Below, one piece after another: positions 33,387 through 56,456 of a stretch of DNA of 64,000 nucleotides. This stretch comes from Centroberyx gerrardi. Lineage: Eukaryota > Chordata > Actinopteri > Beryciformes > Berycidae. The notes under the pieces are model-generated. The model saw nothing but the letters and a program-made list of their open reading frames with translations. It had not been told where the DNA came from and did not search any database. Numbering within the stretch: position 1 is the stretch's first letter; every line of letters starts with the position of its first letter. Position numbers and translations under genes: made by a program. The DNA is taken from assembly GCF_048128805.1 (NCBI RefSeq), contig NC_136016.1, forward strand, positions 16,698,676 through 16,762,675, given 5' to 3'.

Positions 33387-36300
33387 TCAACACAACTCCA
33401 TCATCTCCTCTAGGGAAAGCTGCAGTTCCACAGACTGCAGGGAGGAGGCGCCACCTCCCACAGCCAGACACTTCAGTATCTCCAGTGATGTTAGGACCAC
33501 CTGAGACAGAAAACAAAGAGGGGACACAAGTTAAGACACAGTGTCAAGAGCAAAGGGGACGAATGTGAGCTTGAAAGCAGCTGTAAACGTCCGGGGAACT
33601 GAGCAGTCTTAGTTTCTTAAAGTAACTTTTTTTTTTATATAACCTTTTTCACTTCTCAGCACGTGCAATTCTATAGAAACTCAGGAGCAGAAAAACTTCT
33701 AACACCTGAGGGATCAACTGTCACCACCGGCATTCAGGCCTTTTTTCCCCCGCAGCGCTTTAAATCAATACGGAGACAAAATTACTTCTTGAAAAGTGCT
33801 GCTGACTACAGCTCCCTCGACTGGGCAATTTTGGAGGCTGATCTTTCATGAAATCTGAGGTATATAGAAGAGGTATGTGAGTGGGAAAAAACAATTCTCT
33901 GACAAAGTGAAATATGGCTTTGAGCTCAACACCCTGTCTCTGCATTTTTAATACAAAGGTTTCCTCACCTCCACCATGATGAGTTTCTTCTCCCATGGCC
34001 TGTTGTGTGGGTCGGGCCACTTCTCCCCCAGACAGAAGAACAGCGAACAGGAGGGACACTCTTTTCCACTAATGAAGTCCAGTATTCCTACAGGGACAGG
34101 AGAGCTATGTCAATCCACATTACACTTACCCACGTTACTGTGATTCAATACCTTTTTTGTGTACTTGTACTTTTTTGAGTATTTCAGTCAGTAATTTTAC
34201 TTTACAGGTTTACCTAAGTATTGTACTTCGCCACAGTTTAAATCACATTCGTTACAAAGTACACATTTTGTGGCTCTGCATAAGAAACAGAAACTGGACC
34301 AACGTAAATAAACAAATTGTGGAGCCATTCGCAGTGAACGGTCAGTCAGCTGAGAAGAGGAGAGTAATCTGCCTTTACTTTGTTTGTGCACTTTATTGTG
34401 TAATTTCCAAATGTTCCAGTTAAAATAATCTAGTTTGAACTCTGTCCTCTCGTCCTTTTAGAATGGAAAAAAATCACATCTAACAACGTTCTCTTCTAAA
34501 ATATAAGTAAAATATCAGCAAAGTAACAGTACTTCTACTTGAGTAGGACATTCTAGTACTCTTGCCACCACTGCCAATCCAACATACAAGATGCTGCTCA
34601 TGTATTAACAAATGCACAAACCACACAGTTCCATTATTATTCTCTTCCTCTCACCTCGCACAAAGTCCTTGAACAGATAAAGAGGCTGAGGCTCTAGTTT
34701 GGAGACTTCCCGCGGCTGTCTGCTGCGGTCAAACTTGCAGAGGCTCCAGAAAGCCTTGATTTCACCAAGGCGCTGGCCGTAGACCACGGGGCCGGACACC
34801 CCCACCTCCAGACCCTCTCCCAGCTTGTCCAGGATGCGCTGGGTCAGATTGGCCTGAGTCTTGTCTAGCATGGCCCCGGGTCTTGGCAGGGTTACCACGG
34901 ACAGGCCCGTGTCACGATCCAGGACAGGCTGGGTGAGTTCAGGCCTAATGTTGAGACAATATGACTGCATTTAGAATAGATTCACATTTATATAGCTGGT
35001 TACATGTCTGGCAGAGTCCTGAGCAACGTGCATGCTGAAGCTTAACGGGGGATAATGGACTTTTTCTTTGGTCTGTGGTTTACTGTAATGTTACCTGTAG
35101 ACTAGGCGGAGTCCAGCTTCATTCTCAATCAGCTGCTCAGACACCATCACCCCTCTGTAGTACACCGACACCCTGAACTGAGTCTCTGACAAATCAGAAA
35201 GAGGAAAAACAAAATGTTTTGGAGGAAGTGACAAGCCTCATTCTGTACTGTGTTCCTCTTTAAATGCATTTTCAGTCCCATTGTGGTAAGTCAGAGATGA
35301 TATCATTCATATTGGCACACAGATTATTTTGAATGGCTTATGAAACATGTATGAGTCAATTTTAATATTTTGGGAGGGATACAGACTGTCATTTTTGAGT
35401 TTGGGTAAATGCCTCGTTGGATTTACAACATCCAATAATATGATGGCAGTAACATCCACAAACTTACTGAAATGATCTCCAACCATGGTCTTGGACATGA
35501 TTTCTCTGAACTGCTCCACCATCTGCGGATCGCAGGCTCCTCCTACAGCTCCATCTATTGGATATGCTGGTTGCTCAGGCAACACAACTCCACCGGCTGC
35601 ACCCTCGAATGCTACTGGATACTGCTGTTGCTCAGGCAACACGTGTCCACCAATCACACCCTGACTGGGTTGTTGTTGTTGCTCAGGAGGAGGCTCGAAA
35701 CCAGCGATGCCCTCTATAGAAAAGTTGGAATAACTGAATAACGATTTCTAGGAAAGTACCTTGGATATACAGCTACTGTCTCACAGGAGAAGGAAATGAT
35801 AAGCTCTGCTGATAGATTTACCTGTTTCAGGCTTAATGTTCAGTCCCTGCAGACACTCCTGCAGAATATCATGGTCAATGGTGGATTCTGCTGACAGATA
35901 TTGATTGGTTTATATGATGTTTAGAAATATCAAGAAAAAGACAGCGATTGCACATTCCTAATTATCCAGTTGATTACACTTTCTGAGAAAGACCCTTCCA
36001 AGATACAAAAACTCATGACAAGAAGAAATAAATGAGCAATAATAGCAATAATCTTGAGAGGGACTGCCTTACCTGTAAAAGTGTCATCTGGCAGAAAGAT
36101 ATTTTCACCAAAACATGGGACAACCTGGCTCTAAGACATCAGAGAGAGGTATTTCAGTGAGTTCATAATTTGAGTACATAATTACACTTCATCTTTTGGC
36201 ATCCCCCAATATATTAAACCCTGTATTTCCACTTCCACTTACTTCTTGATTAGAAAAGGAAAGCTCTTCAAACAAATCAGGCTCCTCTTGGTCCTGGGAT

Positions 36301-39300
36301 CCAGCAGAAGAGCAAGCTTTGAGAGGGAAAGCAAAGAGCTCAGTTAGCATCTGCTATTAGCTATGTATTGTTAATTTATTCTCCTCAAAAACACATCCTG
36401 TTAATCTATTACCCCTTTGTAACTGGCATTGACTTGCATCTTGTGCGTTTGGATTTTATCTAGACAGAGGTTAACCACAGAAAACTCCAGATGTACAGTA
36501 AAAGTATCCAACATGTGCTGAAGATGGATAGTAATCTGATCATCCAAATCAGGTCAGGAGGGGGTCAGAGATTAATTTAGCCACATTGATACCGACGTGT
36601 AAATGTAATATCATTTCAAATCCAAACACAACCAACATGCAAGCAGAAACAAACACTGAAATAAGTAGCATCTGCGGTGCACTTTGCTGTACGGCCTGAT
36701 TCTTGTATTTGTCTCCTTTACAATAAAAAATATTGGACTTGTGGAAGAAGAACAATAATGTACACATGCGGTTTCTGTCTTCCTTATCCAATAGTACTGA
36801 AATACATAAGACCAACTGATGCCTAGTGAATTATGCAGAATGCAGTATTACAGCCTCCATCCTGTGAGATTCTGGTTAAAAACACACAAGATGAATAATT
36901 TTGCATTAACTGCAAGAGAAAGTGATCAGCTGGCAATGCGTATTTGCATTTTGGAAGGGAAAGAGCAATCTGATTCTATGTAGATGCATTTTTACTGCCA
37001 GGTGCTACAGCAAAATACAGGTAGGTCACATCTGGATACTCTCTGGATACGAGGCACATTTTAATTCAAGATGTGAAGAGACTGTAATAACGGAGAACGG
37101 CACTCAGCTGAAGAATTAACCATTAATTATACATGGGTCCAAGAATAGTCCAATCAGTATTTGTGAGCATGAGCAGACTGTCTCAGTAGGAAAAGAGCGA
37201 TACGCACTTCCAAGTCTTTCTCTGGTGCTGGACAGTAATCAAGATAAATCCGTACAACAGCCTTCTGCTCCACAAAAATGTTTATTTACTAGACAAGACA
37301 AACAACGTTTCGACCTCAGTTGGTCATCAGGTGTGAGCAACTCTCTCCCAAAACCAGAGAAACTCGATTCTAATATGTTCTGCCAACATAAAGCCTGCAG
37401 CTGCTGCATTGACAGTTAATGGGAAGCAGACAGACAATTACTGGGAGAGTCTGTGAACCGATACAGTGTTTGTCTGAATTTTGATATCCAACTGGGCATT
37501 ACATCACAGCAGAGCTAACAGATACAAAACAGAATATATGTCCTTATTGCCAGAAAATCATCTTTTCCATTTTTGTCATTTTTTAAAGTCCCTATGAAAT
37601 GAACTTCCATTACTTTTACTTCCTGGAAAACAGAGTATCTTTAATGGTGACTTCATGCTACATTAGAAGGCATAAATAAAAATTACAACCAATAAAACGA
37701 TCACAGATTTTTGAACAATCCCGCCCCTCCACCCCTCCCATCAAATAAAACTGCATTTCTCTTCCTGACTGGTATTCCACTGATTTACACTTTTCAATGG
37801 AAAGTGTAAACCACACCAACTCCAAGTCAATGGGACCACAACACAACTTCCCACTCAAAATATAAAGTCAATAAATAATAAAGAGGTTATGGTCTCAGTA
37901 GCTAATGTCACTTCTTCTAATGTGTCTCCTTATGGTGATTTTCAAAATAATTGTGTCATTAATGGGATATAATGCATATAAAACAGGGTTGTTTTCCTAG
38001 GGATTGACAGCTCGCCTGTCCAGTGATCAACAGGTCGCTGATTACGGGCCAATAGCAGGCGGAGCTGCGGACAACCCTCCGCCTCGCTTTGGCTGCTCTG
38101 GCTCCAAAAAATGCAACATGGCGGTGATTGTAAACCCAATTTTTAGGCTTCAAAACGGCCCTTCAGAAACCTATGAGTGACATCACACTCACTACGTCCA
38201 TCTTGTTTTACAGTCTATGGTGTGTATAGTCACAAGTTGATGGTGATGGGGGGGTGGGGGGGTTCCCCTTTAACTTGCCTGTTGTCCACTATCCTAAAAG
38301 CCCAACAGGAGACTGTCTGTCTATGGATGTCCGGATGGATCCTCACCTCCTGAGGGCGCCTTGTCCGGCCAGCAGAACACTTTGTGGGGGTCCGCGGCGT
38401 CGTTCTTGTTGTCGGATAACATTTTGAAGCCTTTGGCTCGGAGGGCGCTGCGGAAGTTCCTCTTCCAGACGGACGGGTCGCCGTGAGCCCTGCCGCTTCC
38501 ACTCACCTCTGCCCAGGCCTATGGGGGAAAGACAGGACCAAGACTGTATCGGAGTATACAGTATGCAAGTATCTGAACGAACATGCATGACAGGTCGACT
38601 AAAGGAAACATGGCATATTTGTTTCTCAAATACAGGGGAGGTAATGTACAGAAGGACAAAGAAGAATCAAACACTGTAAAATATTTACACACACACACAC
38701 ACACACACACATCCAGAGAAACGAAACAGATTTGTTCTTTGCTGATTTTATTTGTTTCTCAAATACAAGGGCGTTAATGTACAGAAGGACAAAGAAGAAT
38801 CAAGAACTGTACAATATTTACACAAAGACTTCTTTTTTTCCTTTTTTTATGGAAAATGATATTGTTTCCAAAATAAGTCATAATATGAACAAACATCAAA
38901 ATGATAAAAATGAAATTACTATTTCCTCTTTAAATATTACTTATTTATACTCCTTCCTGTGTGGGAAATCGAGAGAGTTTATTTCCTTCTTTGCACCTGC
39001 ATGAGGGGCCTAGTGACGGGACTTTCAGTTTCCTTTTTCACTGTGTGAGAACACCATGAACACAAACTATCCATGTATAATGATTAAGCACTTTATTGCT
39101 TTGCCATTAGTAGCATTACATAGTATAATGCTGTAAGAGAAAATAACTACCATGTGTTTAATGATGACCCTGCATGACAGTAAATGTACCTTGAAGATGA
39201 GCACGTCGACGCTGGAGGAGTCCTGCCTCAGAGCGTGTTTCCACGGGATGGAGAACTCCGTGTGCTCCGGGTTCATCCAGGAAACCCCCGGGTATCTCCT

Positions 39301-39354
39301 GCTGTCGATCTGGGCCCGCAGCCAGGGGATGAGCAGGGGCTTTGAGTGAGACAT
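33387..39354 (-). CDS. irf3: Interferon regulatory factor 3
   Basis: IRF3 is the latent cytosolic factor that TBK1 phosphorylates downstream of RIG-I, STING or TLR signalling; it dimerises and induces type I interferon genes. Coding exons: 39354-39190, 38518-38347, 36316-36243, 36130-36073, 35890-35822, 35713-35468, 35185-35095, 34944-34655, 34087-33969, 33500-33387. All are in phase, 1398 nt, 465 aa, as expected for fish. The DNA-binding domain shows the five family tryptophans (11, 26, 38, 57, 73) and KRNFRSALRAKGF. A Pro/Gln-rich linker follows, then the IRF association domain (TQFRVSVYYRG, KECPSCSLFFCLGEKWPD). The tail keeps GGASSL (444-449), the counterpart of the human Ser385/386 site, and an ELQLS motif (453-457) of the pLxIS type. 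It ends soon after, without the longer mammalian serine cluster. Confidence 0.96.
34150..34573. mobile_element. hAT-like MITE in an irf3 intron
   Basis: On the minus strand the element begins CAGTGGTGGCAAGAGTACTA and continues with CTACTCAAGTAGAAGTACTG. The opposite end shows related TACTTGTACTTTTTTGAGTA words. This is the layout of a common fish MITE with CAGTGGTGG ends. The distal boundary is approximate. Confidence 0.55.
36317..38346. other. Second irf3 intron, 2.0 kb
   Basis: No exon is supported inside this intron. A piece at 37225-37345 (CAAACAACGTTTCGACCTCA, GGTCATCAGGTGTGAG) resembles a dispersed fish repeat. The rest shows nothing recognisable. Confidence 0.45.
38598..39004. repeat. 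Duplicated block, copies C and A, in irf3 intron 1
   Basis: Copy A (38711-39004) is nearly identical, by eye, to copy B at 40502-40808: both run from AGAGAAACGAAAC through TTGTTTCTCAAATACA, GTACAGAAGGACAAAGAA and CTTTGCACCTGCATGA. A partial copy C (38610-38700) sits in tandem with A and carries the same TTTGTTTCTCAAATACAGG segment. A CA repeat precedes A and B. Confidence 0.85.
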
Positions 39355-40092
39355 TCCTACAGGGTCAAAAAGATCAGAAAGAAACATCATCTGATCAATA
39401 TCAAGTAGATTCTGCTGCAGGTGCAATATGGACTTTAAAGTAAAACACCCATTCTTTCCCTTTTAGGCTCTTATCACCCTCACCACACCTCCATTTAATA
39501 TCAGCCATAGATCATCTGTCATAATTTATGGCTTTTGAATAGAACAAGGAATAGTCACGTGACGCTCAGCTCACACACAGATCGTCTTTTAAAAGAGCTG
39601 CAGAGCTGAACAAACAATATTCAGTTCACTCTAAATATTCAGCCAGTCGCAGTTTACAGTGATCAAGTCCTGTTGTGCCTTTTGATTCAAATGCTACACA
39701 TGTCGGGGGACTGAACATCTACACACCATCCAAACCAACCCGAACACAGGTTTTCAGCTGGAAACTTTTTTTGGAGTTTAGCTACTCTTTAAGAAAAATA
39801 GTCTTATTAATTTAGACTTTACTCCTTTACTGACTCTCCGATCCAGTGACTTGCAATGAGCGTAACAGTAAAAGTAGCAGAAAGTGCTGAAGACGGAGGT
39901 AAAATTGTTCAACCATGATATAGTATGTAGGCTGAATGTTTATGTTTTGCAAAGGCTGCTCAGAACGACACATTGTTGCATGCTGCAGGTCTGCTAGCAA
40001 GGAAACTATGAAATCGTGTCAATATTTTAATTCATTCAAAAGATTCAGACACTCTAGTTAGCTAACTATAATAAAAACAATATTTTTGCTAC

Positions 40093-40275
40093 CTGACGTT
40101 GACGAGGCTACGCCCAGCAGGTCCGTGTATGAGTCGAAGTGCGGTCGTTGTCAGTGTTAAAAGTCAGAAATATTATGCCAATTGAATGTACAAACTGAAG
40201 TTGTTTGACAAACTGTCATCGAGTCATCGCTGGGTAACTCCTTAAATAACAAAGAGCCAAACTGCTTCCTGCAGC
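40093..40275 (-). other. Non-coding first exon of irf3
   Basis: The coding exon begins two bases after an acceptor at 39357, so a leader exon must lie upstream. A GTAGCA donor at 40092 (minus strand) ends the best candidate, which reaches back to the promoter cluster near 40285. The start of transcription is not fixed. Confidence 0.5.
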
Positions 40276-40284
40276 AGCTGTCTT

Positions 40285-40328
40285 GGGAAACTCCGAGTCC
40301 CTAGTTTCGTTTTCCAGTTCTGACGTCA
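40285..40328 (-). promoter_or_regulatory. irf3 proximal promoter: CRE, ISRE and kappaB cluster
   Basis: Read in the direction of irf3: a perfect palindromic CRE/ATF site TGACGTCA (40328-40321), five bases, an ISRE GGAAAACGAAACT (40315-40303, core GAAAACGAAACT), eight bases, and a kappaB site whose plus strand is GGGAAACTCC (40294-40285), a full match to GGGRNWYYCC. The cluster lies just upstream of the presumed first exon. It would let IRF, NF-kappaB and ATF/AP-1 factors drive irf3, fitting the interferon inducibility reported for fish irf3. Site identity is from sequence; occupancy is inferred. Confidence 0.7.
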
Positions 40329-40355
40329 TCTGCAACTTTCAAGTCCACTAGGTGG

Positions 40356-40501
<146 letters not shown>

Positions 40502-40808
40502 AATCTAGAGAAACGAAACGCATTTGTTCTTTGCTGATTTTATTTGTTTCTCAAATACAGGGGAGTTAATGTACAGAAGGACAAAGAATTTCGTCAAGAA
40601 CTGTACAATATTTACACAAAGACTTTCTTTTTTTCCTTTTTTTTATGGAAAATTAGATCGTTTCCAAAATAAGTCATAGTATGCACAAACATCAAAATGA
40701 TAAAAATGAAATGACTATTTCCTCTTTAAATATTACTTATTTATACTCCTTCTTCCCATATGGGAAATGGATAGTTTATTTACTTCTTTTTCTTTGCACC
40801 TGCATGAT
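40502..40808. repeat. Duplicated block, copy B, upstream of irf3
   Basis: This is the partner of copy A in irf3 intron 1. On the minus strand it contains an AATAAA (plus TTTATT at 40538-40543), so it could be the distal 3' UTR of prr12. Confidence 0.8.
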
Positions 40809-41747
40809 TTTGATGATTGAACTGAAGCACAACAATGTTAAGTTTCAAATATACTTTCCCATTCTCTTCTTTTTACACCCATACTGTATTTGATACTATA
40901 TTTCTGTCTTGACTTTTGCTCTTTTGTATAGAGGGGAAGACAAGTTGGATATGTGGGTTACGATTGTATATTTAACCTGTGGAAAATAAAAAGTATTTAA
41001 AATGTTAGGGCAGCAACCCAGCGCTTGTGAGAGTTTAAGTTAAAAACCTCCTCATATAAATAATAAAAATGTGTTTATATATTATCACATAGCTAACTGG
41101 TGCTGCCCCTCACGTAGCACAGAATGAGGGAGAGCGTTAATTAACACATTTCATGTTTCTTTCCGTGGACGCGTCCATGTTCACACTGCTCACGGCACAC
41201 TCTACACGCAGTTTTAAAAAGCATTCTCACCCTCTTCCACTCTTTTCAAAAGCCAACAGCGGATGTTAGTCTTTTCAAAAAAATAATTTATGTAAAAACT
41301 AAGCAGTAATAGTTTCTCTTTGAACTATTGTCTTCTTGACACACAGTTACATGATGTCAGTGGCTCCTCTGTGACTTGGCGCGGCTCGGCTCCTCTTCTG
41401 ACCTCCACCCTCATGTCTCTTCCTTTCAGAAATGGTCAATTCCCTCTTGACCGGCCGCGAGTGACCCCCTCGATCCAGTGGGGTCCCCCTTCTCACAAAG
41501 TAAGACGTTTCTTTATCATAGTCATTGAGCAACAACAACAGGAAAAAAAAAAAAAGAGGTCAGTGTCTAAGGTCACATGAATAGACTCCTTGTGTTCCTT
41601 GAGGGCCTTGCAAATTCTTCCTCAGATAAAAAGACTTGAAGAGGGTTGGGGGCTGTACAGCAGGGTCCGTCTCTTCCTGTGTTCGGTTTTTTTGAGTCCT
41701 CTTGCTTTGTTTCACTCCCTCTCTCTCTCTCTCTATCAGCGGTCGAC
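40809..41747. other. 3' flank and presumed 3' UTR of prr12
   Basis: No coding exon is supported. It follows the prr12 stop codon on the minus strand and probably holds its 3' UTR. A plus-strand run near 40980 (GGAAAATAAAAAGTATTTAA) resembles the 3' end of a LINE. Confidence 0.4.

Positions 41748-56456
<14,709 letters not shown>

What the first reader, a model, noticed from the sequence alone, without database searches (positions are those of the whole stretch)
40285..40328. irf3 promoter has the site order of the interferon-beta enhanceosome
Within 44 bp, reading toward irf3, there is a perfect CRE (TGACGTCA), then an ISRE (GAAAACGAAACT), then a full-consensus kappaB site (GGGAAACTCC on the other strand). 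The mammalian IFNB1 enhancer has the same order: ATF-2/c-Jun site (PRDIV), IRF sites (PRDIII/I), NF-kappaB site (PRDII). IRF3 is itself a subunit of that complex, so this would be a positive loop in which irf3 is built to answer its own enhanceosome. The sites are seen; cooperative assembly is inferred.
Basis: partly seen in the sequence, partly recalled or inferred. Interest (0 to 1): 0.78.

Follow-up and report, generated by a model that had tools for sequence, protein, structure and literature searches.

The report
Interferon-responsive promoter of fish irf3
The control region of a fish antiviral gene carries a textbook interferon-response switch flanked by two other immune and stress switches in the same order as a famous human interferon enhancer, but its detailed layout differs, so it is most likely an ordinary interferon-inducible promoter and not a copy of that enhancer.

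Summary
The three sites are real and where stated: CRE 40321-40328, ISRE 40303-40314 (minus), kappaB 40285-40294, upstream of irf3 and probably just above a TATA-like box. The cluster exceeds local chance. Of 32 places in the 779-Mb genome with this CRE-then-GAAANNGAAA pair within 25 bp, only irf3 has a kappaB site within 40 bp, though about 1.4 were expected by chance. Of 40 exact copies of its 13-bp ISRE, only irf3 has a CRE or kappaB site within 80 bp. Order and outer span (44 bp) match IFNB1. The rest of the enhanceosome grammar does not: gaps of 6 and 8 bp instead of overlap, two IRF half-sites instead of four, a reversed kappaB site, a symmetric CRE. The ISRE fits the ISGF3 consensus perfectly and misses the published IRF3 consensus at one base. 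Fish irf3 is already reported as an interferon-stimulated gene with promoter ISREs. Best reading: an ISG-type promoter with NF-kappaB and CREB/ATF inputs. A true irf3 enhanceosome is not excluded but unlikely. Conservation could not be tested and the transcription start is not mapped.

The parts
40321..40328 (.). CRE / ATF-CREB palindrome TGACGTCA
   Evidence: only perfect copy in the window
40303..40315 (-). ISRE GGAAAACGAAACT, exact fit to the ISGF3 consensus GGAAANNGAAACT; two in-phase IRF half-sites
   Evidence: consensus from PMC1618399; 40 copies of this 13-mer found in 779 Mb
40285..40294 (+). kappaB site GGGAAACTCC (GGAGTTTCCC reading toward irf3, so reversed relative to PRDII of IFNB1)
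   Evidence: orientation compared
40241..40248 (-). TATA-like box TATTTAAG, 36 bp on the irf3 side of the kappaB site
   Evidence: functional role inferred
40093..40215 (-). possible non-coding exon 1 of irf3 (start approximate, donor CAG|GTAGCA after 40093)
   Evidence: inferred; donor score only moderate and three higher-scoring donors exist at 39484, 39489 and 39727
39190..39356 (-). irf3 exon with the start codon (ATG at 39352-39354), first half of the DNA-binding domain; ends read from splice consensus
38347..38518 (-). irf3 exon with the second half of the DNA-binding domain; ends read from splice consensus
34605..35237 (-). region of irf3 exons of the IRF-association domain (Pfam IRF-3; span of two open frames)
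   Evidence: 38.9 bits for 34605-34970; 20.3 bits, below the 27-bit cut-off, for 35091-35237
39021..39032 (-). second IRF-type site GAAACTGAAAGT inside an irf3 intron
   Evidence: function not tested

Best explanation
This is the proximal promoter of a teleost irf3 gene organised as an interferon-stimulated-gene promoter. The ISRE is the core: after interferon signalling ISGF3 (STAT1/STAT2/IRF9) binds it and raises irf3 transcription, which refills the pool of IRF3 used to make more interferon. The kappaB site adds a direct input from pattern-recognition and inflammatory signalling. The CRE gives basal or stress-dependent CREB/ATF drive. The three sites act as loosely spaced neighbours (a billboard), not as one rigid enhanceosome. 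Shown here: the sites, their geometry and their rarity in this genome. Taken from the literature on other fish: irf3 is interferon-induced and fish irf3 promoters carry ISREs. Inferred: which factors bind, and where transcription starts in this species.
For: The ISRE equals the ISGF3 consensus GGAAANNGAAACT (PMC1618399, passage) and fits the IRF7 consensus GAAWNYGAAANY but not the IRF3 consensus at one position (PMC4430024, passage). There are 0 such ISREs in 233,614 background bases; that background includes the 10 kb upstream of the DNA-binding-domain exon of ten other irf loci and 30 kb around an interferon gene, in which no ISRE of the slightly looser forms GGAAANNGAAAC or GAAANNGAAACT occurs either. 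[quoted passage not shown] irf3 is interferon-induced in fish but not in mammals (PMC5127012, passages; PMC3296712, passages); flounder IRF3 mRNA rises after poly(I:C) (PMC3519686, passages). The cluster lies in a locally CpG-richer stretch (500-bp windows from 39751, 40001 and 40251: observed/expected 0.79-0.89) and 36 bp above a TATA-like box. Human IRF3 promoters also carry NF-kappaB motifs, with moderate NF-kappaB ChIP signal in 4 of 10 cases (PMC4430024, passages).
Against: The transcription start is not mapped. The splice donor supporting an exon 1 here scores only 4.4 bits; three donors at 39484, 39489 and 39727 score 7.4-8.4. No other fish could be aligned, so selection on the CRE and kappaB sites is untested. 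Loose kappaB sites occur in 96 of 2,216 stretches of 104 bp (4.3%), so that site could be chance. GAAANNGAAA with a loose kappaB site within 80 bp also occurs upstream of 2 of the 10 other irf loci scanned (L037, L038; no CRE there). Induction data come from other fish, not this one.
Confidence: 0.72

Rival explanations
1. A true irf3 enhanceosome: ATF2/c-Jun, IRF3/IRF7 and NF-kappaB assemble cooperatively on the 44 bp, so irf3 answers virus directly through its own product, as IFNB1 does.
For: Same site classes, same order, and the same 44-bp distance from CRE start to kappaB end as in human IFNB1 (human sequence from PMC4743414; this means 35 bp centre to centre in both). Ungapped identity is 20 of 44 (0.6% of base shuffles reach this), though the two outer sites account for part of it. 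Position just above a TATA-like box. Only place of its kind by the tests used. In large yellow croaker, interferon promoters are reported with predicted IRF, NF-kappaB and ATF-2 sites (PMC5013148, passage).
Against: Gaps of 6 and 8 bp where IFNB1 sites overlap; two IRF half-sites where IFNB1 has four; kappaB site reversed; CRE symmetric where PRDIV is half consensus. Spacing and orientation are reported to be critical. The ISRE misses the IRF3 consensus at one base.
Confidence: 0.08
2. Only the ISRE is functional; the CRE and the kappaB site are chance neighbours of it.
For: Across the genome CRE-IRF pairs show no enrichment. Of the 32 pairs, 1.39 loose kappaB neighbours were expected and 1 was found. 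The papers seen on fish irf3 stress the ISRE alone.
Against: Given the ISRE, a perfect CRE and a kappaB site both within 25 bp is rare: 0 of 39 other copies of the same 13-mer have either within 80 bp. NF-kappaB and CREB inputs are common in immune promoters (general knowledge).
Confidence: 0.17
3. The cluster, read on the plus strand (kappaB, ISRE, CRE), is an MHC class I-like enhancer A / ISRE / X2 module, perhaps of a divergent transcript.
For: Plus-strand reading gives GGGAAACTCC, then AGTTTCGTTTTCC, then TGACGTCA; MHC class I promoters hold enhancer A, ISRE and an SXY module (PMC3837245, passages; PMC6797598, passages; their order and the X2/CRE likeness are recalled).
Against: To the right lie a microsatellite and the 3' end of the next gene in the opposite sense; no gene start was seen there by eye.
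Confidence: 0.03

Closest known systems
Human IFNB1 enhancer (PRDIV-PRDIII/I-PRDII enhanceosome)
   Same: Site classes, order and 44-bp outer span
   Different: Separated not overlapping sites, two not four IRF half-sites, reversed kappaB, symmetric CRE, ISG-type ISRE
ISRE-driven promoters of fish interferon-stimulated genes, including reported fish irf3 promoters (large yellow croaker and others cited in PMC5013148)
   Same: ISRE in an irf3 upstream region; interferon induction reported
   Different: Whether those promoters also have the CRE and kappaB beside the ISRE could not be read: the sequences are in a supplement or in papers not held
Mammalian IRF3 promoter
   Same: Same gene; NF-kappaB and IRF motifs reported (PMC4430024)
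   Different: Mammalian IRF3 is constitutive and not interferon-induced (PMC5013148); it adjoins BCL2L12, while here the upstream neighbour is the 3' end of a prr12-like gene
MHC class I promoter (enhancer A, ISRE, SXY)
   Same: kappaB, ISRE and a CRE-like element together, order reversed relative to transcription (order recalled)
   Different: No MHC gene here; S, X1 and Y boxes not looked for

Membership tests
IFN-beta type enhanceosome | Order ATF/Jun site, IRF sites, NF-kappaB site toward the gene | tested here: met
IFN-beta type enhanceosome | Outer span from ATF/Jun site to NF-kappaB site (44 bp) | tested here: met
   human sequence
IFN-beta type enhanceosome | Contiguous, overlapping response elements | tested here: not met
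   gaps of 6 and 8 bp; definition PMC3116919
IFN-beta type enhanceosome | Four IRF half-sites for two IRF dimers | tested here: not met
   GAAA at two places; a third GAA triplet is out of phase for AANNGAAA; definition PMC7411613
IFN-beta type enhanceosome | kappaB site oriented with its p50 half next to the IRF sites | tested here: not met
   GGAGTTTCCC toward irf3, GGGAA half distal; definition
IFN-beta type enhanceosome | Asymmetric ATF2/c-Jun site | tested here: not met
   perfect palindrome; definition
IFN-beta type enhanceosome | Cooperative binding of ATF2/c-Jun, IRF3/7, NF-kappaB and HMGA | not testable with these tools
   needs ChIP and mutants
Interferon-stimulated gene promoter | ISRE fitting GGAAANNGAAACT | tested here: met
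   consensus
Interferon-stimulated gene promoter | ISRE close to the transcription start | tested here: inconclusive
   TATA-like box about 55 bp away, but start not mapped and higher-scoring donors elsewhere
Interferon-stimulated gene promoter | Gene induced by type I interferon | not testable with these tools
   reported for irf3 of other fish, not for this species
MHC class I type promoter | A gene start on the plus strand behind kappaB-ISRE-CRE | tested here: not met
   only a CA microsatellite and the 3' end of an opposite-strand gene seen to the right
MHC class I type promoter | S, X1 and Y boxes of the SXY module | not tested
   not looked for

The most novel reading that the evidence does not exclude
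Some teleosts have put a variant enhanceosome on irf3 itself: the CRE-to-kappaB distance of IFNB1 (44 bp) is kept while the middle was rebuilt as an ISGF3-type ISRE. The same DNA could then be read first by virus-activated ATF/IRF/NF-kappaB and later by ISGF3, making irf3, not the interferon gene, the coincidence detector.
Probability: 0.07. Interest if true: 0.7.

Novelty: new member of a known kind. Interest (0 to 1): 0.33.

Why it matters
Mammalian IRF3 is constitutive while fish IRF3 is interferon-induced, and in the papers I could see the cis-elements behind that difference are only loosely described. This promoter gives a compact, testable candidate: one perfect ISRE with a CRE and a kappaB site within 44 bp. 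If the flanking sites work, irf3 would be tuned by virus sensing and stress as well as by interferon, which would help explain why fish interferon can amplify itself.

Tried and rejected
Conservation: no fish relatives are held (one search states it), and a scan of viral contigs with most of the start-codon exon of irf3 gave 33 pattern matches, none a relative. Paper searches for fish irf3 promoter layouts (listings seen) led to papers that describe the ISRE but print no irf3 promoter sequence in the passages I saw; one search found 0 papers. This is no proof that none exists, since figures and most subscription papers are not held and supplements were not available. Other interferon genes: two further interferon-like exons on C7 (39% identity, E 0.015) gave no recognisable proximal promoter within 1.5 kb, so only one interferon promoter was compared. 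The idea that the nearby repeat is a transposon carrying an ISRE was dropped: it matches only this locus (3 places). MHC-like and divergent-promoter readings were considered and set low. The ten other irf loci were scanned only over 10 kb upstream of their DNA-binding-domain exons, so promoters behind longer introns may have been missed; one further irf match on a small contig (C94, same scores as C1) was not scanned. Counts from the genome search may be lower bounds, as the tool says. No tRNA gene lies in 36000-46000, and passages of PMC12220609, PMC9933344 and PMC13030082 added little; the last mentions that IRF3-promoter reporters exist for large yellow croaker.

Full report
What is there. 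The window lies at C20:16698676-16762675 of a 779-Mb genome with 278 contigs, a teleost by its genes (inferred). irf3 runs on the minus strand. Its DNA-binding-domain exons match Pfam IRF at 53.7 and 34 bits, and downstream exons match Pfam IRF-3 (38.9 bits, and 20.3 bits, the latter below cut-off). The joined DNA-binding domain gives 102.8 bits to solved IRF3 chains and 69.1 bits to a separate IRF7 chain. To the left, on the other strand, is a Ric8-family gene. To the right is a prr12-like gene on the same strand as irf3 (weak DUF4211 match below cut-off; the name is recalled). Its last open frame ends near 41750, and AATAAA signals in its sense lie at 40775-40780 and 40539-40544. So the cluster lies between the end of one gene and the start of irf3.

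The three sites are exactly as described. Toward irf3 the strand reads TGACGTCA, 6 bp, GAAAACGAAACT, 8 bp, GGAGTTTCCC. The ISRE has one more matching base on its 5' side, GGAAAACGAAACT, which is the ISGF3 consensus GGAAANNGAAACT as given in PMC1618399 (passage seen). Against the consensus sequences printed in PMC4430024 (passage seen) it fits IRF7 (GAAWNYGAAANY); for IRF3 the two bases after GAAA should be C or G, and the first here is A.

Is it more than chance? In 233,614 bases of background from this genome (two window pieces, thirteen 10-kb loci and 30 flank pieces), the CRE occurs 2 times, GAAANNGAAA 38 times, GGAAANNGAAACT 0 times, and the loose kappaB pattern 125 times. In 5,000 shuffles of 252 bp of this promoter the trio never arose. 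Genome-wide there are 32 places with a CRE followed within 25 bp by GAAANNGAAA (reversed-letter control 94, which lacks the CpG) and 49 with the IRF site turned round, 14 of them one repeat. The pair itself is therefore not enriched. I read the flanks of 31 of the 32 as fetched loci, plus irf3 in the window: only irf3 has a loose kappaB site within 40 bp, where 1.39 were expected by chance. Taken alone, that shows no genome-wide enrichment of the trio. The 13-base ISRE was found 40 times (reversed-letter control 80), 15 of these in one repeat family. All 40 were read with 80 bp on each side: only irf3 has a CRE, and only irf3 has a loose kappaB site. So the company of sites at irf3 is unusual given its ISRE, but the sites were picked after reading and the statistics must be discounted for that.

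Comparison with IFNB1. Using the human sequence printed in PMC4743414, the distance from the first base of the ATF site to the last base of the kappaB site is 44 bp in both, and 20 of 44 ungapped positions agree (0.6% of base shuffles). Against it: IFNB1 elements overlap (PMC3116919, passages), include four IRF elements (PMC7411613, passages) and tolerate little change of distance or orientation (PMC4743414, passages). Here the middle has two IRF half-sites, the kappaB site is flipped so that its GGGAA half points away from the ISRE, and the CRE is symmetric, so by itself it would not orient an ATF2/c-Jun dimer the way PRDIV does (inferred). Order alone is weak evidence, as only six orders of three sites exist.

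Comparison inside this genome. The type I interferon gene on C20 (Pfam Interferon, 30.4 bits) has a compact promoter with one GAAAGTGAAA and a TATA box, and no perfect CRE, AP-1 or loose kappaB site in 480 bp; an ATF-like TGACATGA lies 100 bp upstream of the IRF site. The 10 kb upstream of ten other irf DNA-binding-domain exons show no strict ISRE and no trio; two of them have a GAAANNGAAA with a loose kappaB site within 80 bp. This scan can miss distant promoters. So, from the one interferon promoter and ten irf loci seen, there is no sign that an enhanceosome layout is a shared device. Against this, PMC5013148 reports predicted NF-kappaB and ATF-2 sites beside IRF sites in croaker interferon promoters (passage).

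What is known. [quoted passage not shown] PMC5127012 and PMC3296712 also call fish irf3 interferon-induced in the passages seen. PMC3519686 (passages) reports that flounder IRF3 mRNA rises after poly(I:C). The ISRE of this promoter is therefore expected. What may be new is the tight CRE and kappaB company; I did not find it described in the searches, but most such papers and all supplements were out of reach.

Mechanism. I favour an interferon-stimulated promoter with loose extra inputs (0.72), over an ISRE with chance neighbours (0.17), a true enhanceosome (0.08) and an MHC-like module (0.03). Direct IRF3 or IRF7 binding to the same ISRE is compatible with this. The weakest link is the unmapped start: the TATA-like box at 40241-40248 and a donor at 40093 suit a first exon here, but higher-scoring donors lie at 39484, 39489 and 39727.

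Noticed in passing
window 40507-40790, 38715-38992 and 38616-38691: A stretch that looks like the end of the neighbour's 3' untranslated region is duplicated into an irf3 intron (90% identical, plus an 88% partial copy); a genome search found it nowhere else. The intron copy carries AATAAA in irf3 sense at 38747-38752, a possible premature poly(A) site.
   Followed up: partly
window 39021-39032 (minus): A second IRF-type site GAAACTGAAAGT lies in an irf3 intron.
   Followed up: no
window 40232-40241: A second kappaB-like word GGGTAACTCC, one base different from the first, overlaps the edge of the TATA-like box.
   Followed up: no
G000:C12:2083022-2083042 (L051, L069): A CRE directly abutting an ISG-type ISRE (TGACGTCAGGAAAGTGAAACT), with a TATA-like sequence behind it, stands in front of an XPG-domain gene that looks like aste1 (gene name recalled). 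This abutting layout is closer to PRDIV-IRF of IFNB1 than irf3 is.
   Followed up: partly
L091, L092 (C12:2111174 and 2127786): Two near-identical stretches with the exact ISRE word, 17 kb apart and close to the aste1-like gene; perhaps a tandem cluster of interferon-stimulated genes.
   Followed up: no
L055, L062, L063: Three similar stretches share a CRE followed by GTGAAAGTGAAA-type arrays.
   Followed up: no
L073-L078, L083, L088-L090, L094, L095, L097, L102, L105: A repeat family (15 copies seen) carries the exact ISRE word GGAAAACGAAACT, a possible source of dispersed interferon-responsive sites.
   Followed up: no
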